Assembly: GCA_023374025.1 (NCBI GenBank)
Contig: SIJG01000004.1
Span: forward strand, 2,415,226-2,479,225
DNA from: Heterodera schachtii
Lineage: Eukaryota; Nematoda; Chromadorea; Rhabditida; Heteroderidae
Direction: 5' to 3'
DNA: 64,000 bases
Shown: piece after piece, positions 539 through 48,100 of the stretch
Layout: each line of letters opens with the position of its first letter
Position numbering within the stretch: position 1 is the stretch's first letter
Program-made: the position numbers and the translations under genes
The notes under the pieces: generated by a model
Seen by the model: only the letters and a program-made list of their open reading frames with translations
What the model was told of the DNA's origin: nothing
Database searches by the model: none

Positions 539-4514
<3,976 letters not shown>

Positions 4515-5214: not shown

Positions 5215-5432
5215 TCAAAAAGAGAGGGAGAGAAAGAGAACGAGAGAGAAAGTGAGAGAGGCAATGAAGCAAGAGAGAGAAGAGAGGAAAGAGTTTGTGT
5301 GAGAGAGAAGAGAGGTGGGGAAGAGAGGTGGGGGAAGAGAGGGGGAGAAAGAGAGAGAGAGAAAGAGAGAGAGAAAGGGAGAGAGAGAAGGAGGGAGTGG
5401 GGGGAAGAGAGGGGGAGAGAGAGGGGGAGAGA

Positions 5433-5513
<81 letters not shown>

Positions 5514-5535
5514 GGGGGGGGAGAGGGGGAGAGGG
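5215..5535. repeat. GA-rich microsatellite ending in a G run
   Basis: About 320 bp of almost pure purine: irregular GAGA/GGGGA blocks, then about 27 perfect GA repeats and a run of roughly 19 G. It lies between the divergently transcribed SPCS1 and astacin genes. The long open frames inside it are low-complexity artefacts (poly Arg-Glu or Ser-Leu). Confidence 0.9.
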
Positions 5536-5893: not shown

Positions 5894-8800
5894 ATGAAAT
5901 GCTTCAATTTGTTGTCATTATTTCTCTTTTTTGTTCCATTGTTTTCAAAAAACAATGCGCAAATTGCGTCAGTCCAACATCAGCAGTGGGCGCCGGCGGT
6001 TGGGCGGAATGCCATTGCCAACCTTAGCATTCGGCAAAATGTCACTGCGAATGTCTTTCAGCCTTCTGATCAGTCGAACAATCAACGAAATATTCCAAGG
6101 CAACTGCCGAAGTCGTCAAACCAATTAGCACAGCTAACGACGAATCAGCAACACAACAGCAACGGGACTTCATCGGCTTCGCCTTCCCAAAACCCAAAGT
6201 CGGACCCATTCGTCCCAGCAGCAGAACACGCATTTGCTGCAAAAGGACAACAGAGGACAAATAATCAACAGAAAAATTCAGCAAAGCCGACAAATGCAGC
6301 AAGGCTATTGCCAACGATGACATTCCCAACAACAGAACAATCTGAGACTCAAAACAATAGTATCAGTAATGAAAATGACCATTTGAAAATGAGAGAAGTG
6401 CCAAAGCCGAAGAAAATGGCAAAACAATGGACGAAGACGGAATTTGGAGGGGAAAACGAAGTCAACGCGGAAAACACACCAAGTTCAATCGAAGGAGCGA
6501 ACACGTGGCACGAAATGTTGAATAATAGGACGGCACAACGCTTATTGGAGCAGGGACAACGATTATTGGATAAATTAGAAAGAAACGGAACGGAAGAGAG
6601 GCCGAGGAAAGGTAGGCAAGTCAAAATAAATATTTTAATTTAAAATATTTAAATATGCAAATTAAGAATACCAAGGGACACCAAACGTGCCAACAGTGTC
6701 GAACAACGGAACATCGTTTGGACGAGTCGCACCTCCGGGGATTTCGGACGGCATAATGCACCAAGGGACATTAAACGTGCCAACAGTGTCATACAACGGA
6801 ACATCGTTTGGACGAGTCGCACCTCCGGGGATTTCGGACGGCATAATGCACCAAGGGACACCAAACGTGCCAACAGTGTCGAACAACGGAACATCGTTTG
6901 GACGACTGTCACCTCCGGGGATTTCGGACGGCATAATGAACCAAGGGACACCAAACGTGCCAACAGTGTCGAACAACGGAACATCGTTTGGACGAGTGGC
7001 ACCTCCGGGAATTTCTGACGGCATAATGAACCAAGGGACACCAAACGTGCCAACAGTGTCGAACAACGGAACATCGTTTGGACGAGTGGCACCTCCGGGA
7101 ATTTCTGATGGCATAATGAACCAAGGGACACCAAACGTGCCAACAGTGTCGAACAACGGAACATCGTTTGGACGAGTGGCACCTCCGGGAATTTCTGACG
7201 GCATAATGAACCAAGGGACACCAAACGTGCCAACAGTGTCGAACAACGGAACATCGTTTGGACGAGTGGCACCTCTGGGAATTTCTGATGGCATAATGAA
7301 CCAATGGACACCAAACGTGCCAACAGTGTCGAACAACGGAACATCGTTTGGACGATTGGCACCTCAGGGAATTTCGGACGGCATAATGCACCAAGGGACA
7401 TTAAACGTGCCAACAGTGTCGAACAACGGAACATCGTTTGGACGAGTCGCACCTCCGGGGATTTCGGACGGCATAATGCACCAAGGGACACCAAACGTGC
7501 CAACAGTGTCGAACAACGGAACATCGTTTGGACGAGTCGCACCTCCGGGGATTTCGGACGGCATAATGAACCAAGGGACACCAAACGTGCCAACAGTGTC
7601 GAACAACGGAACATCGTTTGGACGAGTGGCACCTCCGGGAATTTCTGACGGCATAATGAACCAAGGGACACCAAACGTGCCAACAGTGTCGAACAACGGA
7701 ACATCGTTTGGACGAGTGGCACCTCCGGGAATTTCTGACGGCATAATGAACCAAGGGACACCAAACGTGCCAACAGTGTCGAACAACGGAACATCGTTTG
7801 GACGAGTGGCACCTCCGGGGATTTCGGACGGCATAATGAACCAAGGGACACCAAACGTGCCAACAGTGTCGAACAACGGAACATCGTTTGGACGAGTGGC
7901 ACCTCTGGGAATTTCGGACGGCATAATGAACCAAGGGACACCAAACGTGCCAACAGTGTCGAACAACGGAACATCGTTTGGACGAGTGGCACCTCTGGGA
8001 ATTTCTGATGGCATAATGAACCAATGGACACCAAACGTGCCAACAGTGTCGAACAACGGAACATCGTTTGGACGAGTCGCACCTCCGGGGATTTCGGACG
8101 GCATAATGCACCAAGGGACATTAAACGTGCCAACAGTGTCATACAACGGAACATCGTTTGGACGAGTGGCACCTCTGGGAATTTCGGACGGCATAATGAA
8201 CCAAGGGACACCAAACGTGCCAACAGTGTCGAACAACGGAACATCGTTTGGACCAGTGGCACCTCCGGGAATTTCTGACGGCATAATGAACCAAGGGACA
8301 CCAAACGTGCCAACAGTGTCGAACAACGGAACATCGTTTGGACGAGTGGCACCTCAGGGAATTTCGGACGGCATAATGAACCAAGGGACACCAAACGTGC
8401 CAACAGTGTCGAACAACGGAACATCGTTTGGACCAGTGGCACCTCCGGGGATTTCGGACGGCATAATGAACCAAGGGACACCAAACGTGCCAACAGTGTC
8501 GAACAACGGAACATCGTTTGGACGAGTGGCACCTCAGGGAATTTCGGACGGCATAATGAACCAAGGGACACCAAACGTGCCAACAGTGTCGAACAACGGA
8601 ACATCGTTTGGACGAGTGGCACCTCCGGGAATTTCTGACGGCATAATGAACCAAGGGACACCAAACGTGCCAACAGTGTCGAACAACGGAACATCGTTTG
8701 GACGAGTGGCACCTCCGGGAATTTCTGACGGCATAATGAACCAAGGGACACCAAACGTGCCAACAGTGTCGAACAACGGAACATCGTTTGGACGAGTGGC

Positions 8801-11800
8801 ACCTCCGGGAATTTCTGACGGCATAATGCACCAAGGGACACCAAACGTGCCAACAGTGTCGAACAACGGAACATCGTTTGGACGAGTGGCACCTCAGGGA
8901 ATTTCTGACGGCATAATGCACCAAGGGACACCAAACGTGCCAACAGTGTCGAACAACGGAACATCGTTTGGACGAGTGGCACCTCCGGGAATTTCTGACG
9001 GCATAATGCACCAAGGGACACCAAACGTGCCATCAGTGTCGAACAACGGAACATCGTTTGGACGAGTGGCACCTCAGGGAATTTCGGACGGCATAATGCA
9101 CCAAGGGACACCAAACGTGCCAACAGTGTCGAACAACGGAACATCGTTTGGACGAGTGGCACCTCCGGGAATTTCTGACGGCATAATGAACCAAGGGACA
9201 CCAAACGTGCCAACAGTGTCATACAACGGAACATCGTTTGGACGAGTGGCACCTCCGGGAATTTCTGACGGCATAATGAACCAAGGGACACCAAACGTGC
9301 CAACAGTGTCGAACAACGGAACATCGTTTGGACGAGTGGCACCTCCGGGAATTTCTGACGGCATAATGCACCAAGGGACACCAAACGTGCCAACAGTGTC
9401 GAACAACGGAACATCGTTTGGACGAGTGGCACCTCCGGGAATTTCTGACGGCATAATGCACCAAGGGACACCAAACGTGCCAACAGTGTCGAACAACGGA
9501 ACATCGTTTGGACGAGTCGCACCTCCGGGGATTTCGGACGGCATAATGAACCAAGGGACACCAAACGTGCCAACAGTGTCGAACAACGGAACATCGTTTG
9601 GACGAGTCGCACCTCAGGGAATTTCGGACGGCATAATGAACCAAGGGACACCAAACGTGCCAACAGTGTCGAACAACGGAACATCGTTTGGACGAGTGGC
9701 ACCTCAGGGAATTTCGGACGGCATAATGAACCAAGGGACACCAAACGTGCCAACAGTGGCGAACAACGGAACATCGTTTGGACGAGTGGCACCTCCGGGA
9801 ATTTCTGACGGCATAATGAACCAAGGGACACCAAACGTGCCAACAGTGTCGAACAACGGAACATCGTTTGGACGAGTCGCACCTCCGGGAATTTCGGACG
9901 GCATAATGAACCAAGGGACACCAAACGTGCCAACAGTGTCGAACAACGGAACATCGTTTGGACGAGTGGCACCTCCGGGAATTTCGGACGGCATAATGAA
10001 CCAAGGGACACCAAACGTGCCAACAGTGTCGAACAACGGAACATCGTTTGGACGAGTGGCACCTCCGGGAATTTCTGACGGCATAATGAACCAAGGGACA
10101 CCAAACGTGCCAACAGTGTCGAACAACGGAACATCGTTTGGACGAGTGGCACCTCAGGGAATTTCTGACGGCATAATGCACCAAGGGACACCAAACGTGC
10201 CAACAGTGTCGAACAACGGAACATCGTTTGGACGAGTGGCACCTCAGGGAATTTCGGACGGCATAATGAACCAAGGGACACCAAACGTGCCAACAGTGTC
10301 GAACAACGGAACATCGTTTGGACGAGTCGCACCTCCGGGAATTTCGGACGGCATAATGAACCAAGGGACACCAAACGTGCCAACAGTGTCGAACAACGGA
10401 ACATCGTTTGGACGAGTGGCACCTCCGGGAATTTCTGACGGCATAATGAACCAAGGGACACCAAACGTGCCAACAGTGTCGAACAACGGAACATCGTTTG
10501 GACGAGTCGCACCTCCGGGGATTTCGGACGGCATAATGAACCAAGGGACACCAAACGTGCCAACAGTGTCGAACAACGGAACATCGTTTGGACGAGTCGC
10601 ACCTCCGGGAATTTCGGACGGCATAATGAACCAAGGGACACCAAACGTGCCAACAGTGTCGAACAACGGAACATCGTTTGGACGAGTGGCACCTCCGGGA
10701 ATTTCTGACGGCATAATGAACCAAGGGACACCAAACGTGCCAACAGTGTCGAACAACGGAACATCGTTTGGACGAGTGGCACCTCCGGGAATTTCTGACG
10801 GCATAATGAACCAAGGGACACCAAACGTGCCAACAGTGTCGAACAACGGAACATCGTTTGGACGAGTGGCACCTCAGGGAATTTCTGACGGCATAATGCA
10901 CCAAGGGACACCAAACGTGCCAACAGTGTCGAACAACGGAACATCGTTTGGACGAGTGGCACCTCAGGGAATTTCTGACGGCATAATGCACCAAGGGACA
11001 CCAAACGTGCCAACAGTGTCGAACAACGGAACATCGTTTGGACGAGTCGCACCTCAGGGAATTTCTGACGGCATAATGCACCAAGGGACACCAAACGTGC
11101 CAACAGTGTCGAACAACGGAACATCGTTTGGACGAGTCGCACCTCCGGGAATTTCGGATACGATTTCTACAACTACCCAATTTACTACAACAGCGACAAA
11201 TTTCCCAACAACTTCCGTTGTCACGACACAAGATCCTAATGTTAGAAGCGAATTCGAAAAAGCGGATGCTCCCGAAATTTTGAAAATTTTTATTCCACCT
11301 AAACCTCCAGCGGTGCCACAAGAAGCAAAAAAGATTTTTGAGGTTTATAGCAAATGCTTTAATCTTTTTTTACCAGACTTACTCAAAATATTAGGATTTA
11401 TGTGCCGGAGGGAAATGTTTGGTGCAAAAACCTGAATTTATACAGCAAAAAGCGGCGGTAGAGAAAGAATCAGAGCAAATCGAACAGAAATTAAAGTGAG
11501 TTTTAGTAAAGGAATTTTAAAGAAAAGAAAAGAATTTGAAGCCCTGGGAAAAGTGCGGAGCAAGTGAAAAAGGAAGTGAAAGTGCGCATGGCCAAAACGC
11601 AGCAGCTGAAGAAGGCACTCGTGCAAAATGCCGGCCTCGAGGGACAGGTAATTAAGAAAGAAATTGACCAAGCTGATTGAAGTTGGATATTGGTCAAAGC
11701 AAATTGAGACTTGGTGTGATCAAAGTCATAGAGTTGAATTTGCCATTCTCAGTGGCGCGTTCTCCAAATTAGTCAATTTGCCTTAATTGGAAGACCCTTT

Positions 11801-12969
11801 CCGTAGAGTCTTAAAATTGTGCTGACGGACCTAAGTTTGAAAATGGAACCCAAATGACCTTAATTAAAATTTTTAAATTAAAAAATATATAAAATAAAAT
11901 AATTCAGATATTTTATTTTAATTATGTTTTATTTGCTTTAATAATTCAATTAATATAATTTACTAGCAAAACGGTCCGTTGTTTCACTTAAAATGCTTCT
12001 TCAGGTGGAACCGGCGGACAACGGAGTGTTTGGACATGACCAATTGTTAACGGAGACGCAAGCGAACGATTTGCTCAACGAATTGACGCGTCACAAAGCG
12101 AACAGAGCCAAAAGGGCGGGAAACGCAATGTTTTTGGAAGCGACCAACACAAAGCGATGGGAGCCGAGCAAAGCCATTCCATTCATGTTCGACCAGTCGT
12201 TAGGTGGACAAGAATTTCTTAAATTCCGAAAAACGCAAAAATTTGTTGTTGTTTTTTTAGCTAAGGTCGACAAACAATCGGTTCGAAAAGCGATCGTCGA
12301 AATTCAGTCGAAGACCTGCTTGAAGTTCAAAGAAGTGAAGGTCAAACCCACGGGTTCGCATCTGTACTACACCAAAATCGCCAATCCGACGTTGTGAGTT
12401 CGGCTCCCCCCCTTTCTTTCCTTGGCCAAATCCTTCGTTTTTTTAGCTGTGGGCTCAGTTACGTCGGTCGGGTGGAGCCGGCCAACCCCATTTACCTCAG
12501 TTTTATGTGCGGAAACCCCGCTGGGGTGGCCGTCCACGAGACAATGCACGCCCTAGGCTTCCAACACGAGCAGCTCCGCTTCGACCGCGACCAGTTCATC
12601 ACCATCCAATGGGAAAATGTGAATCCGCAGCAGTTGGACTTCTTCACCGTGTCGGACGTGACCAAATTCTCAAGGTGATCCCCCGCAGAGTCCGTCAGTC
12701 CGTGGGAGAGGAGGCATTCCCAAATGAATGCTTATTCGAATCGCAGCTACGGAATCAAATACGACTACGGCTCCATCATGCAATATGCGAGCACAATCGC
12801 TTCAAGTGCCCCGGGCAAAAAGACAATGGTGGCCAAATTGAAGCCGACCGAAAATGAACGCCTAATGGGACAGCGGGAAGGACTGTCCCTTTCGGACGTG
12901 GAAGCGGTGAAGAAAATGTACTGCCAACCGAGTGAGAGGGAAAGGGCGGCACACGGAAAAACTAATTAA
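5894..12969 (+). CDS. secreted astacin zinc metallopeptidase with 50 tandem 30-residue repeats
   Basis: Eight exons splice in one frame: 5894-6611, 6667-11342, 11395-11495, 11542-11647, 12005-12203, 12261-12393, 12447-12674 and 12747-12969 (6,384 nt; 2,127 residues). Order along the protein: signal peptide (MKCFNLLSLFLFFVPLFS; an ATG 30 bp upstream is possible), Asn/Gln/Ser-rich spacer to residue 240, repeats at about 241-1736, Thr/Ser-rich linker, a short Cys-x5-Cys segment, a propeptide with the LLTETQA element, a furin-type NRAKR site (about 1904), then the catalytic domain. That domain carries HETMHALGFQHEQLRFDRD (zinc ligands about 2008, 2012 and 2018), the Met-turn YDYGSIMQY and four cysteines as in astacin. 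No EGF or CUB domain follows. Nematode astacins act in hatching, moulting and digestion; the substrate here is unknown. The link between repeat and protease rests on splice phases, so RNA evidence would settle it. The exon 4 acceptor (TTTGAAG) is the weakest. Confidence 0.85.
6672..11157 (+). repeat. 90-bp coding minisatellite, 50 copies
   Basis: The unit encodes 30 residues built around VPTVSNNGTSFGR, then VAPPGISDGIM and NQGTPN. The VPTVS motif occurs at exact 90-bp steps from 6687 to 11097, giving 50 copies with no stop or frame loss. Each unit has one N-glycosylation sequon (NGT), no Cys or Lys, and about 30% Gly plus Pro, suggesting a disordered, glycosylated stalk. Variation is confined to few sites: Pro/Leu/Gln in VAP[PLQ]GIS, Asn/His in IM[NH]Q, Val-Ala codon GTC/GTG, Gly/Trp in QGT/QWT. 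Because 90 is divisible by three and the unit lacks stops in other frames, long spurious frames exist on both strands. Confidence 0.97.
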
Positions 12970-13599
12970 TCAACTAATTACGCCCAAATTTGGGCTCATT
13001 AAATATCCCTACTGTAACCAGCAACAATTATTTGTTAAGGTTGTGACGACAAAATAATCTTTTGTGGCATTTGGGCGACGATGAATTTGTGTGAGTTCAG
13101 TTGAAAATGATTATCTCAAAATATTTTATGCATTCAATTTTGGCGATTTATTGCTTAAGGCGACCCGCGAATGTGGCGGAGAGCGGTGGTGCACGCGTGG
13201 ATTGTGGAAAACTGCCAAAAATCATGCAATAAATGCGGGGAGAAAGTGCAATCGGTCAAAGGGCAGGCGGCCATTTTAAAGTTGGCCAATTGACGCGGAA
13301 AGCGACACAAAATAACTTTTGAATGGCATTCATTGCCTTTGTTCTCACTTCGTTTGGTGCTTTTGCTTATCCCTTTTTTTCTTTTTCATATCCAACATTC
13401 GCAATTGTCTCTTTTGCTCCTTTCGCCCCCTCCCCTCCTCTCCGTGTTTTCCTTTCTCTCTTCCTCCTTTTCTTCCATCATTCCGTCCTTTCTCAATTTC
13501 TTGCCAATTGTTCTGTTTTCTTTTCCTTCTTTCGCCGTTACTTTTGCCATCGCCTCCTTTTTGACCTTAAATGGAATGGCAATGCTTTTGAAATGCGTT
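12970..13599. other. intergenic space between convergent genes
   Basis: This is the 3' flank of the astacin gene and of the convergent AGMO gene. It holds pyrimidine-rich stretches (13370-13560) and no gene I can support. Confidence 0.6.
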
Positions 13600-40503: not shown

Positions 40504-43314
40504 ATGTCTGCTGCTCCGACAGGTGCTTTCACATATCCTCTTGAAGATATGAGCCTTTCTTTTAGCGCATTATGCTTACAATGCTGGCGACCCAAATGTT
40601 CAGGGCGCAACATCGTTTGACCCGCAGGTAACAAAAGACTGACATTGGAATCATCAGAATGGGAGTTGGTTAAGCTGGCACAGAAACAATATGAGGCATG
40701 GCAGCAGTATTATGCACAGACTGGGGCTGGACAACAACCGGTGCAGAACATTCAACAACATACCGGACAAGAGGCACAATTCCTTTGTTCAAACATTGTC
40801 CATTTCCATAATCGTTTTTAGGTTGGTGGGACATATAAAGCCTATTTTGACCAGCCGGTCCCCGGCACGGTGCCGCCCGCTGCTGCACCTCAACCGCTCG
40901 CCAGTGCTTATGTTGGCCGTCCCGCTTCGAATGCGCCTGTCTTTCCACCGCCTCAACCACCGCAAGTGCAACAAATGGCCGCCCCAGTTGGTGGAGCATG
41001 GGCCGCCAGTGGAGGCCCTCCCCAACAGGCGCAACAGCGCGGGCCACCAGCGCCATTGAATTCGTTCATGGGCGGGCCACCGCCGTACGGGCAACAAACG
41101 CCGCGCGGTGGGGGCTTTCAACGCGGCGGGAGCAGTCAAAGTCGCTGGAGCGGTGGTGGGAGTGAACGCCAATTCAGCAGAAGGTGAAAACTGCGCAAAA
41201 ATTTGGGGAATTGAGTGATAAAAATAGACCAAACGAGTACAATTATATGTTGGTCTATTTAATTTCTCTAAGTTCCAAAGGAAGCGAAAGACTAACATTT
41301 CGATTGGGAAAGGACATTGTGCAGAATGAAGGCCCTGTATTATGTTTTAAGTATTAATTATAACAAAACCTCTGAATTGTTGAATGCATTGATTCTCAAT
41401 TATAGCGGTGGTTTCTTATCTTTGAAAATCTCATTGGTTCCAACAAATATTCAAATTTTCTGCGTGAATATATTAAAAATATTTGATTTCTCTCTTTTTT
41501 TGGGTTATTTGTCGTAATAAACCAAGTAAATAATAAACTTAAACTAATTGGTCTTTCTGCACAATTGAAATGTTGAAGTAGTCATTTTTGCAGAAATGGT
41601 ATAAGAATTTTTCTAATTGAACATTCCCAATTAATGAACGGTTTGCTCCTCTTTCGAGGAGGGCAAGTTTTATTTCGAAGGATTTTTACGGTGGTATCAA
41701 AGAAGAAGGAGTGGAGGAAAGGGAGGAGGGTGGAGGAGACAATTGTGCTATGTGTGTAATGACTGAATGATTCATCTGTCCATTCAGACCCGGTGATTAT
41801 AATAGCGGCCCACCGGGCGGTCAAGCTGGTTATCGAGGTATTTGCAACTCAACGCTTTGCTTGTCTCGTAACTTATAAACTATTATCTAATGAGAACTGG
41901 TGGAATTATTTATTATTTTTTAAAAAATTTCCCTGGTCCAATACGTCGGTGTTTTGGCGGACATTTTATTCGTTTTCGCTTTTATTGCGTGGATTTTATT
42001 ATATTTTAGCAGAACAATTGACTGTGTATTTTAAACAAAGTACAGGGATTGGTAATAAGCATGAATATTGACATTTAACGGTCCAATAAAAAGGAAAATA
42101 AATGGGAAAATTTTAAAACCGAGTTATATGTGTCTCGATTTTTTGTTTGAAAAACTTGTTCAACTACTAACCCTTCAGGTGGCGGTGACGGTGGGTTTGA
42201 CCGGCGATCGTCCGGCGGAGGCCCAATGAGACAGGAGAGAAGCCGTGGAGGTGGTGAAGAAGGTGGCTTCGAGAGCAAGAACATCCTCTTCTTCTCGGGA
42301 CTTCCGCAACAGTCAGTGAAGAAAGGAATGTTTGCCTTTATTTGTCTCTTTACAGTGTCAACGAACAATTCATTCATGATGTGTTCAGTATGCAGCAAGG
42401 AGATGTTGAAACTGACCAGAATGGTGGCCCAAAGATACGAATTTACAAGGAAGGGGGACAGTCCAAAGGCGAGTGCACCATCACTTTCCGCGATACGGCG
42501 GTAGCACAGCGCGTGATGGACACATACAATGGTGAGACAGCGGCTAATTGTAAGCCTTTCTCACATTTGTGCAACGGATTGCATAGGACAACCCTTTCCT
42601 GGCACGGACAATGTGATGGACATTTCTTTTGCCAAATTCGGTGGAGGTGGTGGAGGCCGCGGGGGAGGTGGTCGCGGCGGAGGCGGGTCACGCTTCGGAG
42701 GGGGCGGAGGACGAGGAGGAGGCGGCGGCGGTACTTTTTGATGATTTGTCCTTACCTATTTAGTCTCAGGTTTCGGTGGTGGTCGTGACTTCCGTCGTGA
42801 TGGCGGTGGCGGAAGCGGAGGTCGTGGGCCGCCGCGAGACGGTGGTGGATTTGAAGGTGAACTGTGGAAATCTAATGATGGTGTTTAACACGTATTAATA
42901 AAAGATGGCGGATTCACCCCGGGAGGTGGTCGTAGCAGAGGGGATGGTGGCCGTGGCCGCGGAGGAATGGGTGCTCGTGGTGACCGTGGTGGACGAGGAG
43001 GAGGTGGTGGTGGTCGTGGGAGGGGCGGCTTGGAAATGCGTCAGGGCGACTGGAGCTGCCCGTAGGATTTTATTCTGTTTATTTCCTTACTTTTCTTGAC
43101 ACATTTGTTCGTTTTAAGCTGCGGAAACATCAATTTCGCGTTTCGTAAGGAGTGCAACTCGTGCCATGCGCCGAAAGGGCCGCAAAATGGTGGTCCGCCG
43201 CCAGGTGCATTTGGCGGGACTCCCCCTGGCGGATTCCCTGGCGGAGGGGGACCGATGCGTGGGTACGAAGGCGGTGGAGGAGGGGGATTTGCTGAACGAC
43301 CGAGACCATATTGA
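40504..43314 (+). CDS. FET-family RNA-binding protein (FUS/TAF15-like)
   Basis: FET proteins bind RNA and work in transcription and splicing. From the ATG at 40504 the exons give a Tyr/Gln-rich low-complexity N-terminus (QYEAWQQYYAQTGAGQQPVQ), a Pro/Gln/Gly-rich part with FMGGPPPYGQQTPRGGG (40870-41185), a short exon PGDYNSGPPGGQAGYR (41790-41837), RGG segments, then an RRM: NILFFSGLP (42275), VNEQFIHDVFSMQQGDVE, KGECTITFRDTAVAQRVMD and NVMDISFAKFGGGG (42630). Long RGG tracts follow (42650-43040) and a RanBP2-type zinc finger (GDWSC…CGNINFAFRKECNSC, 43045-43165) with a Gly/Pro-rich tail ending RPRPY at 43314. Domain order equals FUS/TAF15 and nematode FUST-1. The zinc-finger intron leaves only one residue between the first two cysteines, which is unusual. 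Confidence 0.88.
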
Positions 43315-45107: not shown

Positions 45108-48100
45108 CTAAGAAGCGACAGATAAAGCAGTCGACGACTTCCTTTCCAAGTGACACTGCCAAATTTCATGAGCAATTGGCAGCAAAGCGTCGGGCCCCAC
45201 CACTAGGCCATCCGTTCTGATTACACCGTACAGTTCTCTAAGGAGCCGGTCCACATTCAACATTCGCGAAGAGGCGATCAAAACGAATTGGCGTTTGGCG
45301 CGAGTAATTGCCACCTTTTTTGAAAGCCGTTGGTTGGGTTTACGCGTCAGAATGGCTCACATTTGTCCGACGGTGTTCTCTCAGGAAACCGATGTCGCGC
45401 ATTTTGTTATTGCGCACCAATGACATCACAATGGCTTCTCGCTGCTGCCCTTGGAACGCGTCGACGGAGCTGACTTCGAAGCGTGGTCCCTCGTCCCTTC
45501 CCATGGCCATTAGCTTTTGAATCTTTTCCGCCTGTGCCGAGTACGGCGTAATACAACCGATTTTCGACAAATCCAAACCGCCGAATAAATTCAACGCGTG
45601 GAGGTGAAGGACGGCACAGAAAGCCTCGCCTTAAGCAAAAAAGTTAAATTGAAAAGAATGGGAAACCAACCGATGTTGTGGAAGGAGTGCGTGTGCTCAT
45701 TCTGACCCTCGCGGAAAGAGAGGGGATACCACAACTTGAACAAGCTGTAGACTTTCTGCCATTTACTGTCAGAAATGCCTTTGTCCTTAATCGGGAATGA
45801 TTCTACTTTATAAAATTGCTGAGAGAATTTACAAATTATGCGGAAATGCTTCAACTCAGTGCGAAAAGTGGGCTTTCCAATTTCGAAATATCCCGAAATG
45901 TCTCTGCGATAGCTCACCGTATCGATGAGCACAAGCGGACCATCGATCAGAAATTTTTGTTTTGAGGACAAAGGAAAGCCGAAATTCGTACATTATTATT
46001 AGGGACGGGAATGTCTGTTCGTTTTCTTACCATTTTGTTGGTTTATTATTTGGCGCAAGTGAATGTTTTTCGTTAACTGATAAGTGACCAATTTGTTGTC
46101 GTAGAATATTTTGTTGGACCATTTTTGAATTAGTTCATTTGACCGATATTGGACAGAAAGAAAATGGTAGAAATCCTTAAAAGTGACGTTTTACACAGTT
46201 TTAAACACTTTCCATGCAGCACCTCATTTTTGAAGGTTTCGTTGATATATTCTAACAGCGAAATGTGCAGTCTTTCAGCTGAGTTCACCGGGGAGTTCCG
46301 AGCAGAAAGCAAAAAAGGGGGCAATTGCTGGTGGTCTCCAACAATTACGAAACGGGGAGCCTTAAAGGGTGGCATTTGGCAAGAACGTGAAAAGGGGGGG
46401 GGGAGGACGTGAAGCAGCATAATCCAACTGGCGCATTCGACCATTTGGGACGCCTCGTCCATCACGACCAAGTCGGGGCAGAACCAACGCTTGAGCAGAA
46501 AGCGCAGTGCTTGTCCCGAGGTGCACGTGCAGAAAATCTGTGGGAAATGCCGACACTTTTGGCACCATTGCGCCGGACTGACCACACTTGTGCCCTTTCC
46601 GATGCTTTCGCAGATTTTGTTCTTCCTTTTGCCCATTTTCCTCAAAAGCGAATGAAAACGGCGAATGTGTCGGTCACTGAAGGCGAAGGTTTCAAATGGA
46701 ATTACAAAGCCGCGACTTGTCCAAAAAGTCCCTTTGGCTTTTGATTTCTCGTGAGTTCCGAATGTCCTTCTCAATGCGTCCGTATTCGGCGTGGTTTTGT
46801 GCCAATTTCCCAATTCGATATTCGCTCAGTGCGCCGTCGTCCGCCTCTTCCCCCAAACGTACAAAATTGTCCAACCCATTCATTTTGCACGCCTCCATTG
46901 CATTCTGAAACGGAGGGATTGAAAAGGACATTCAGCGCAAATTATTACATCGACTGCCTTATGCGACGGGGCACAGACCAACACATTTTTGCCCTTTTTG
47001 ACATGCTAAATTTATTTCAGATAGCATCCGCTTATGAGTGAATTGGACCTGCAAAACGATTTCGGCGATGACTTTGGTTTTGCCTGTCCCCGGTGGCCCA
47101 TGGATTGCGACAAAGGGACGACTTCTGTTAATTGCCGAAGCGATGGCGGAGATTTGGGAGCTGTTGAATTTCTGACAAAGTGTCAATTCAAATGAAAGTT
47201 TAGTGCCAATCCGTTACTTTGGCCAACAAATTCCACATTTTCTTATCCCGCTTGGTTTTCTTCAGTTTTTCGTTTCGCAAAATGCCATAGGCATAAAGCA
47301 AAGTGTCGAAGCCGGGGAGTCTTTGCATTTCGCGAGGGTTGCACAACAAATTGACCAAATATTGGTAAGGGTTCACGGGATTCTGAAATGAATTGATAAT
47401 TCGATTTCGAACTTCCAAGTGACCGGTTTCAGAAGCCATTCGCTGTGCTCGTGAAGTGTAAACTGACGCAACGCCGTAGCAGACGAAAGGTCATTGTTTA
47501 GACGCACTTCCAACAAAGCATTGCTGAATAATTAAAAAATATTTCAACGGATTAAAAAAGCAAATTATTTTTAGGATTAATTGGGTGATCTACTAATTAT
47601 AAGTCTCTAAAATTCTTTAAAGCGCAAAAGAAACTTTTCCCACCTTTTTGCGTACACAATTCCCGCAATTTTGTCGCTTTCTTTGATTTGTCTGCCCATT
47701 TCCTTGGGCCAAATTGAAACTCGAGAGTTTTGCTGAATTTCAAATGCGCTTTCATCCTCCGCTATCTGAGTATTTTTCCGAGTAATTGCTTTTTTCGGTT
47801 CTTCTCAAAAGGGTGACCAATTCGAAGCGGAGATGGTCACCACCAATTGGTTTGTGTTCCGTGCCCTTCAGCACAACAACCAGCGGATCCACGAATATTT
47901 GTTCGCTCCTTTCCCTCAACGCCAAACTTTCTGCTTTCAAAAGTTGCTCCCATTGGGCGAGGCGCCGTAAGAAATGTTCAGGGAAAACGAAAGAGTCGGC
48001 CTTTCTAAGAGAAAAATAACGAAAAGAAAGCACAGAGGGACGACGACACCTCATTCTTTTGCCAACAGAACAGTGCCGAAGATGGACAAGCAAAGGACGA

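What the first reader, a model, noticed from the sequence alone, without database searches (positions are those of the whole stretch)
5894..12969. Astacin protease carrying a 1,500-residue array of fifty 30-residue repeats
Seen: eight exons join with GT–AG borders in one frame (6,384 nt), linking a signal peptide, 50 perfect-phase repeats, a propeptide with a furin site and a complete astacin domain (HETMHALGFQH, SIMQY). Known: astacins normally carry short propeptides and, in nematodes, C-terminal EGF/CUB/ShK modules, usually a few hundred residues in all. Inference: the repeat forms a long, disordered, heavily N-glycosylated stalk (one NGT per unit) shed when the zymogen is cut, or it tethers the enzyme in eggshell, cuticle or gland secretion. 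I know of no described astacin with this architecture.
Basis: partly seen in the sequence, partly recalled or inferred. Interest (0 to 1): 0.88.

Follow-up and report, generated by a model that had tools for sequence, protein, structure and literature searches.

The report
Astacin protease with giant repeat pro-region
A cyst-nematode gene (most likely from the beet cyst nematode) is predicted to make a secreted astacin protease whose inactive form carries fifty near-identical 30-residue units ahead of its activation site, a piece that would be cut away when the enzyme is switched on and that likely holds the inactive enzyme in place.

Summary
The array is real: 50 in-phase 90-bp units, one open frame; every one of the 50 genome-wide matches to its 35-bp core lies here. 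The array belongs to the astacin: no internal secretory start was found, and an independent Globodera rostochiensis gene model joins a different 22-aa array to the same linker, prodomain, astacin and ShK. The protein is nas-9/nas-10-like and groups with the two Globodera orthologues (100/100). The array lies N-terminal of the prodomain, latency motif and RAKR site, so the enzyme left after cutting would be ordinary (272 aa). The predicted pro-region, 1,881 residues, compares with a published range of 34-486. The NGT sequon in every unit is absent from the Globodera array, so N-glycosylation of the array is not conserved. Spacer or tether function is inferred; a tolerated repeat expansion is the main rival. 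New variant of a known kind. No transcript data were available.

The parts
5894..6611 (+). Exon 1: start codon, hydrophobic signal-like N-terminus, then an N/Q/S/T-rich stretch (239 residues, six N-glycosylation sequons)
   Evidence: Frame and splice donor GTAGGC; hydrophobic core 3.0 on the Kyte-Doolittle scale; 0 Pfam families; no other copy in the genome beyond two matches at E 0.29 and 0.59
6667..11342 (+). Exon 2: the whole repeat array plus a Thr-rich linker and the start of the conserved pro-segment
   Evidence: linker aligned with P0001
6669..11155 (+). Array of 50 in-phase 90-bp units (consensus NQGTPNVPTVSNNGTSFGRVAPPGISDGIM); 29 distinct DNA units
11395..11495 (+). Exon 3: pro-segment, includes the C-x4-C pair conserved with Globodera
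11542..11647 (+). Exon 4: helical prodomain
   Evidence: helices at pLDDT about 88-96 in the matching part of P0001
12005..12203 (+). Exon 5: latency motif, furin-type site, start of the catalytic domain
12029..12040 (+). FGHD, the presumed aspartate-switch motif (family form [FY]xxDxLLTE)
   Evidence: 46 of the 53 best relatives carry the family form; role from PMC9848320, passages
12104..12115 (+). RAKR, furin-type cleavage site
   Evidence: Read from the sequence; cleavage is predicted, not shown
12261..12393 (+). Exon 6: catalytic domain
12447..12674 (+). Exon 7: catalytic domain with the zinc site
12535..12570 (+). HETMHALGFQHE zinc-binding motif
   Evidence: Sequence
12747..12931 (+). 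Exon 8: end of the catalytic domain with the Met-turn SIMQY (12772-12786)
13040..13090 (+).
13160..13293 (+).

Best explanation
This gene is predicted to encode a secreted, nas-9/nas-10-like astacin-ShK protease zymogen whose N-terminal pro-region has grown into a roughly 1,500-residue array of fifty 30-residue units, which would be removed with the propeptide on furin-type cutting at RAKR and which likely acts as a long flexible spacer or tether that keeps the latent enzyme in an extracellular matrix. Shown by sequence: array, frame, domain order, orthology to a Globodera protein with a different array in the same slot. Predicted: secretion, latency through the FGHD aspartate, cutting at RAKR, disorder of the array. 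Inferred and untested: the tether or spacer role and the tissue (cuticle-forming hypodermis or reproductive tract, by analogy with C. elegans nas-9). My odds by part: gene architecture about 0.9, array inside a removable pro-region about 0.8, tether or spacer function about 0.4.
For: Array and frame. One gene: of 17 ATGs tested between 5801 and 12200 outside the array, three had a hydrophobic start (core above 2): 5894 (in frame), 5899 (other frame, closes after 42 codons) and 12185 (inside the catalytic domain, its hydrophobic run lying in intron 5); ATGs inside the array were not scored. Independent support: G. rostochiensis P0001 (612 aa) has a 22-aa array at 37-157, then the same TTT linker, APEILK...PPKPP, prodomain, RGKR, astacin and ShK. 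Orthology: window, P0001 and P0003 group at 100/100 and with two Meloidogyne proteins at 100/99 in a tree of 31 rows, 30 of the 122 fetched proteins plus the window. The two arrays look related: unit against unit scores 78, reached by 1 of 2000 unit shuffles. In P0001 modelled with 27 sequences the array region has pLDDT about 27-42, while the prodomain helices and catalytic core mostly lie at 88-98. In 5 of the 53 best relatives a tandem repeat was detected, in all 5 upstream of the latency motif, so this pro-region is where repeats arise in the family. Tissue analogy: C. elegans nas-9 is expressed in major hypodermis, uterus and spermatheca and peaks in L3 (PMC2824743, passages and section 13).
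Against: No transcript or peptide data. No protein in the searched database carries the N-part and array (4,485 candidates of about 720-2,292 aa, none at E 10 or better), and no Heterodera orthologue turned up at 367-1,169 or 1,197-3,808 aa. The annotated orthologues of G. pallida (P0003) and Meloidogyne (P0004, P0005) have no array, though none of their models begins with an evident signal peptide, so they may be incomplete. Exon 1 has no detectable similarity to the N-terminus of P0001 (476 of 500 shuffles score as high). Selection on the array is not demonstrated: piN/piS is 0.38 in the coding frame against 1.36 and 1.01 in the other two forward frames, but two antisense frames give 0.41 and 0.37, and a column-shuffle test gives P = 0.089. 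AlphaFold2 on eight units alone gives a beta-solenoid (pLDDT 77.4, pTM 0.73) rather than disorder, with the five models ranging from 77.4 down to 37.8.
Confidence: 0.5

Rival explanations
1. The array is a tolerated minisatellite expansion in a disordered, length-insensitive pro-region, with little function of its own; the enzyme works as any nas-9/nas-10-like astacin once the pro-region is cut off.
For: The units are recent and homogeneous (97% matches; 29 distinct DNA units of 50). The pro-region is repeat-prone in relatives (5 of 53). Length differs greatly between genera (about six 22-aa units against fifty 30-aa units). Selection tests are weak (P = 0.089; antisense frames as low as the coding frame). 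N-linked sequons are not conserved.
Against: Fifty units with no stop and no indel in the coding frame, although recent homogenisation could also give that. The unit core (QGTP, GRVxPxG) seems kept between Heterodera and Globodera (1 of 2000 shuffles). None of the matched exons at four paralogous loci fetched from the same genome overlaps a comparable array.
Confidence: 0.35
2. Two genes or two transcripts: a secreted repeat protein (exons 1-2) and a separate astacin (exons 3-10), only apparently in one frame.
For: Weak splice signals at introns 1-3. No database protein joins this N-part to the astacin. Some annotated orthologues start downstream of the array (P0004, P0005).
Against: No secretory start in frame for the astacin half among the ATGs tested; the array frame has no start of its own with a signal peptide and must be spliced upstream (sequence). 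P0001 joins array and astacin in one model.
Confidence: 0.07
3. The array folds as a stiff beta-solenoid rod rather than a flexible chain.
For: AlphaFold2 on eight units: pLDDT 77.4, pTM 0.73, regular strands in every unit.
Against: AlphaFold2 is reported to fold more than 40% of random perfect repeats into confident beta-solenoids (PMC11795689, passages). Five models disagree (77.4 to 37.8). Best PDB match E 7.9e-3 with TM 0.13, none at E 0.001 or better. The orthologous Globodera array is modelled as disordered.
Confidence: 0.08
4. The array is a peptide precursor: each unit is released as a short signalling peptide, for example a plant CLE-like mimic, with the astacin as passenger.
For: One arginine in 48 of 50 units (composition) followed by V-x-P-x-G, an opening also seen in the Globodera unit. 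Cyst nematodes are known to secrete peptide mimics (recalled).
Against: No dibasic or furin site in the unit. Counting from the arginine, positions 11 and 12 are Ile and Met, whereas plant CLE peptides have a characteristic His at 11 and His or Asn at 12 (PMC4526924, passages).
Confidence: 0.03

Closest known systems
Globodera rostochiensis A0A914I5S2 (P0001), annotated only as 'Metalloendopeptidase'
   Same: Orthologue (100/100 with G. pallida P0003); 85% identical over 343 columns; N-terminal tandem array, Thr-rich linker, prodomain, astacin, ShK in the same order
   Different: About six 22-aa units instead of fifty 30-aa units; no N-glycosylation sequon inside the array; no evident signal peptide in its gene model
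C. elegans NAS-9 and NAS-10 (astacin subgroup II, ShK)
   Same: Same family by search and tree; [FY]xxDxLLTE latency motif, four catalytic-domain cysteines and a C-terminal ShK
   Different: No comparable array; they carry an FCRRxPGHPKC-type cysteine module near the N-terminus that my pattern does not find in the window protein or P0001. NAS-9 a-isoform P0053 lacks the HExxH stretch in the sequence fetched
Crayfish astacin, meprins, BMP-1 (M12A, solved structures)
   Same: Catalytic domain aligns (17 distinct PDB sequences at E 0.001 or better; with the P0001 model, including the crayfish zymogen 3lq0)
   Different: Pro-regions of 34-486 residues in the published survey (PMC9848320, passages) against 1,881 predicted here
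Fish meprin-like astacins with tandem arrays (e.g. P0116 Channa striata, P0097 Oryzias melastigma)
   Same: Astacins with tandem repeats of 7-40 residues
   Different: Arrays lie in the C-terminal part, after the protease, and would stay on the mature enzyme

Membership tests
Astacin (peptidase family M12A) | HExxHxxGFxHE zinc motif | tested here: met
   HETMHALGFQHE at 12535-12570
Astacin (peptidase family M12A) | Met-turn SxMxY | tested here: met
   SIMQY at 12772-12786; the common SIMHY has His where this has Gln (Globodera P0001 also has Gln)
Astacin (peptidase family M12A) | Pfam Astacin profile over its whole length | tested here: met
   E 9.8e-51, 172.6 bits against cut-off 22.5, profile 2-189 of 189 (on the first exon model)
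Astacin (peptidase family M12A) | Propeptide motif FXGDI giving an aspartate switch | tested here: inconclusive
   FGHDQ: Phe and Asp in place, Gly and Ile replaced; family form [FY]xxDxLLTE in 46 of 53 relatives; motif as given in PMC9848320, passages
Astacin (peptidase family M12A) | Proteolytic activity | not testable with these tools
   Needs expression and assay
Nematode astacin subgroup II, nas-9/nas-10 group | C-terminal ShK (SXC) domain, no CUB, EGF or TSP1 | tested here: inconclusive
   Six cysteines; ShK profile matched over 1-37 of 37 at E 0.0012, 19.8 bits, just under the cut-off of 20.9; P0001 gives 19.2; no CUB, EGF or TSP1 match
Nematode astacin subgroup II, nas-9/nas-10 group | Groups with NAS-9/NAS-10-type proteins and apart from subgroup IV NAS-31 | tested here: met
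   Tree of 31 rows: 28 rows incl. NAS-9, NAS-10 and the window apart from the three outgroup rows at 100/100, midpoint root
Nematode astacin subgroup II, nas-9/nas-10 group | N-terminal FCxRxPxHPKC-type cysteine module (seen in many members) | tested here: not met
   Pattern absent from window protein and P0001; it was found in 26 of the 53 best relatives with a narrow pattern that misses some true cases such as P0007; not a formal defining feature, so membership is not denied
Furin-type activated secreted zymogen | Signal peptide and R-x-K-R site before the catalytic domain | tested here: met
   Hydrophobic start and RAKR at 12104-12115; secretion and cutting themselves not testable here

The most novel reading that the evidence does not exclude
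Cyst nematodes have turned an astacin pro-region into a fast-evolving, genus-specific repeat module: a removable giant stalk of about 190 kDa that stores and positions a latent 31-kDa protease in an extracellular coat, is left behind at activation as a separate repeat glycoprotein, and changes its unit (22 to 30 residues, gaining an N-glycosylation site per unit) and copy number between genera.
Probability: 0.3. Interest if true: 0.7.

Novelty: new variant of a known kind. Interest (0 to 1): 0.5.

Why it matters
If the model holds, this is the longest astacin pro-region I could find on record: 1,881 residues against a published range of 34-486 (PMC9848320, passages). It shows that the part of a protease that is thrown away at activation can be a rapidly evolving repeat module, and it explains why automatic annotation keeps losing the 5' end of this gene in plant-parasitic nematodes. 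Nematode astacins are studied as targets for moulting, hatching and invasion, so a correct model of a cyst-nematode member is of practical use. A direct test exists: follow the array and the mature enzyme separately with two antibodies.

Tried and rejected
My own acceptor giving exon 8 from 12714: rejected for the same reason. Two-gene reading: disfavoured (and P0001). Dispersed repeat or satellite: rejected, since all 50 matches are here and a protein-level search with three units finds only this array (27 matches). Array common to paralogues: not seen in the matched exons of four loci (L030 has arrays, but between exon matches). Calicivirus and other Pfam matches to the repeat are below their cut-offs and taken as chance. 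Beta-solenoid model: distrusted. CLE-like peptide: rejected. DOG box upstream: none in 1 kb, uninformative. Homology of exon 1 to the P0001 N-terminus: none detected. Selection on the array: suggestive only. Rfam and tRNA scans of the window: nothing. Third protein search with the N-part and first units: nothing. Papers: no paper on an astacin with an N-terminal array in the listings; most subscription papers and all supplements were out of reach, and the helminth astacin survey cited in PMC9848320 (Martin-Galiano and Sotillo 2022) was not read.
Full report
What was checked. The window is G000:C4:2415226-2479225 of a 178.49-Mb, 356-contig genome. Exon pieces of the Heterodera schachtii protein P0042 (niasHS_017594) match this genome at contig C42 with 75-100% identity per piece, several at 97-100% (pieces are read without regard to introns). 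Published H. schachtii assemblies are about 179 Mbp in 395 scaffolds (PMC9582021, passages) and 183 Mb in 458 (PMC11817004, passages). I therefore take the species to be most likely H. schachtii; this is an inference.

The array. Tandem Repeats Finder reports period 90, 49.8 copies, 97% matches, no indels at 6670-11155. In the coding frame the consensus unit is NQGTPNVPTVSNNGTSFGRVAPPGISDGIM; 50 units run without a stop, of 29 distinct DNA types. The 35-bp core has 50 matches in the genome at up to 3 mismatches, all here, none for the reversed control. A search with three protein units also finds only this array (27 matches). The 239-residue N-part has no other match better than E 0.29.

The gene. 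Ten exons (5894-6611, 6667-11342, 11395-11495, 11542-11647, 12005-12203, 12261-12393, 12447-12674, 12747-12931, 13040-13090, 13160-13293) join with GT-AG borders into 6,531 nt, 2,176 aa, one stop at the end. Exons 8-10 were settled by comparison with Globodera P0001. The last two exons carry six cysteines and match the ShK profile over its full length at 19.8 bits, just under the cut-off of 20.9, as does P0001 (19.2 bits).

One gene or two. Of 17 ATGs with at least 15 codons between 5801 and 12200 (those in 6667-11155 left out), three have a hydrophobic core above 2: 5894, the in-frame start; 5899, in another frame that closes after 42 codons; and 12185, inside the catalytic domain with its hydrophobic run in intron 5. 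So the astacin half has no secretory start of its own that I could find. P0001, an independent gene model, places a 22-residue array (37-157) before the same linker, prodomain, astacin and ShK. Against this, no database protein joins the N-part and array, no Heterodera orthologue was found in the lengths searched, and the annotated G. pallida and Meloidogyne orthologues lack an array, though their models show no evident signal peptide either.

Family. The best relatives are nematode astacins of the nas-9/nas-10 kind (137 proteins at E 0.001 or better among 5,310 candidates, 120 listed). In a tree of 31 rows (30 of the 122 fetched proteins plus the window) the window groups with P0001 and P0003 at 100/100 and with two Meloidogyne proteins at 100/99; C. 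elegans NAS-9 and NAS-10 fall in the same 28-row group. The window protein is a member of a group of paralogues in this genome: four further loci match relatives P0042, P0009, P0046 and P0008 best. Their matched exons do not overlap comparable arrays; L030 has tandem arrays between its exon matches, and the stretches were only 9.9 kb each.

Where the array sits. It lies upstream of a helical prodomain, of FGHD (the presumed aspartate switch) and of RAKR. After cutting, the enzyme would be 272 residues, 30.6 kDa; the whole precursor is 225 kDa before glycosylation and the pro-region 1,881 residues if 23 are taken as signal peptide (23 is my assumption). The published range for astacin pro-regions is 34-486 residues (PMC9848320, passages). 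In P0001, modelled with 27 sequences, residues 1-200 have pLDDT about 27-42, the prodomain about 88-96, the catalytic domain mostly above 83 with dips to 60-64, and the ShK part about 60-67. The model matches astacin structures including the crayfish zymogen.

Evolution of the array. Among the 53 best relatives five have a tandem repeat by my score (P0001, P0019, P0020, P0046, P0047), all upstream of the latency motif, only P0001's being long. The Heterodera and Globodera units align with a nine-residue gap (QGTP, GRVxPxG, G) at score 78, reached by 1 of 2000 unit shuffles, so they may share an ancestor. The extra nine residues hold the NGT sequon: 50 sequons lie in the Heterodera array and none in the Globodera one, where the nearest is at residue 36, one residue before it. 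Among 49 units piS is 0.063 and piN 0.024 (ratio 0.38); the other forward frames give 1.36 and 1.01, but antisense frames 0 and 2 give 0.41 and 0.37 with stops in 6 and 11 of 48 units, and antisense frame 1 gives 1.23. A test that shuffles variable columns gives P = 0.089. Selection is thus suggested, not shown.

Shape. AlphaFold2 on eight units alone gives a beta-solenoid (77.4, five models 77.4 to 37.8), without a convincing PDB match (best E 7.9e-3, TM 0.13). I prefer a flexible chain.

Function. C. elegans nas-9 is expressed in major hypodermis, uterus and spermatheca, peaks in L3, and one RNAi study gave low-penetrance embryonic lethality (PMC2824743, passages and section 13). By analogy the enzyme likely works on cuticle or reproductive-tract matrix, and the array likely spaces or tethers the latent form there. 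This last step is inference. The main rival is that the array is a tolerated expansion in a length-insensitive segment.

Verdict. Its 3' end, its statement on missing C-terminal modules and its weight on N-glycosylation needed correction. It is a new variant of a known kind, with a shorter, unremarked relative already in UniProt.

Noticed in passing
6649-11142, minus strand: A 1,497-codon antisense open frame runs along the array, simply because the 90-bp period is a multiple of three; not taken as a gene.
   Followed up: partly
5221-5529: A long AG-rich microsatellite ending in a G run lies about 370 bp upstream of the start codon, possibly in the promoter region.
   Followed up: no
L029 (G000:C41:230000-239900) and protein P0046: The H. 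trifolii protein P0046 (1,149 aa) joins a rabGAP/TBC domain to a nas-9/10-like astacin; the two halves match L029 with a gap of about 1.1 kb between them, which looks like two neighbouring genes fused by annotation.
   Followed up: partly
protein P0002 (Caenorhabditis bovis, 1,061 aa): Two complete nas-9/10-like prodomain-astacin-ShK units in one annotated protein, either a tandem gene fusion or a true double enzyme.
   Followed up: no
L030 (G000:C91:296500-306400), 3395-3683 and 4048-4284: Several tandem arrays of 26-64 bp lie between exon matches of a paralogous astacin gene, so repeats also accumulate in introns of this family here.
   Followed up: partly
46130-46813, minus strand: Open frame matching Pfam AAA_11 (E 1.1e-10), part of a likely helicase gene.
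   Followed up: no
42342-42788, plus strand: Open frame with a weak RRM match just under the Pfam cut-off (19.7 against 20.7 bits).
   Followed up: no
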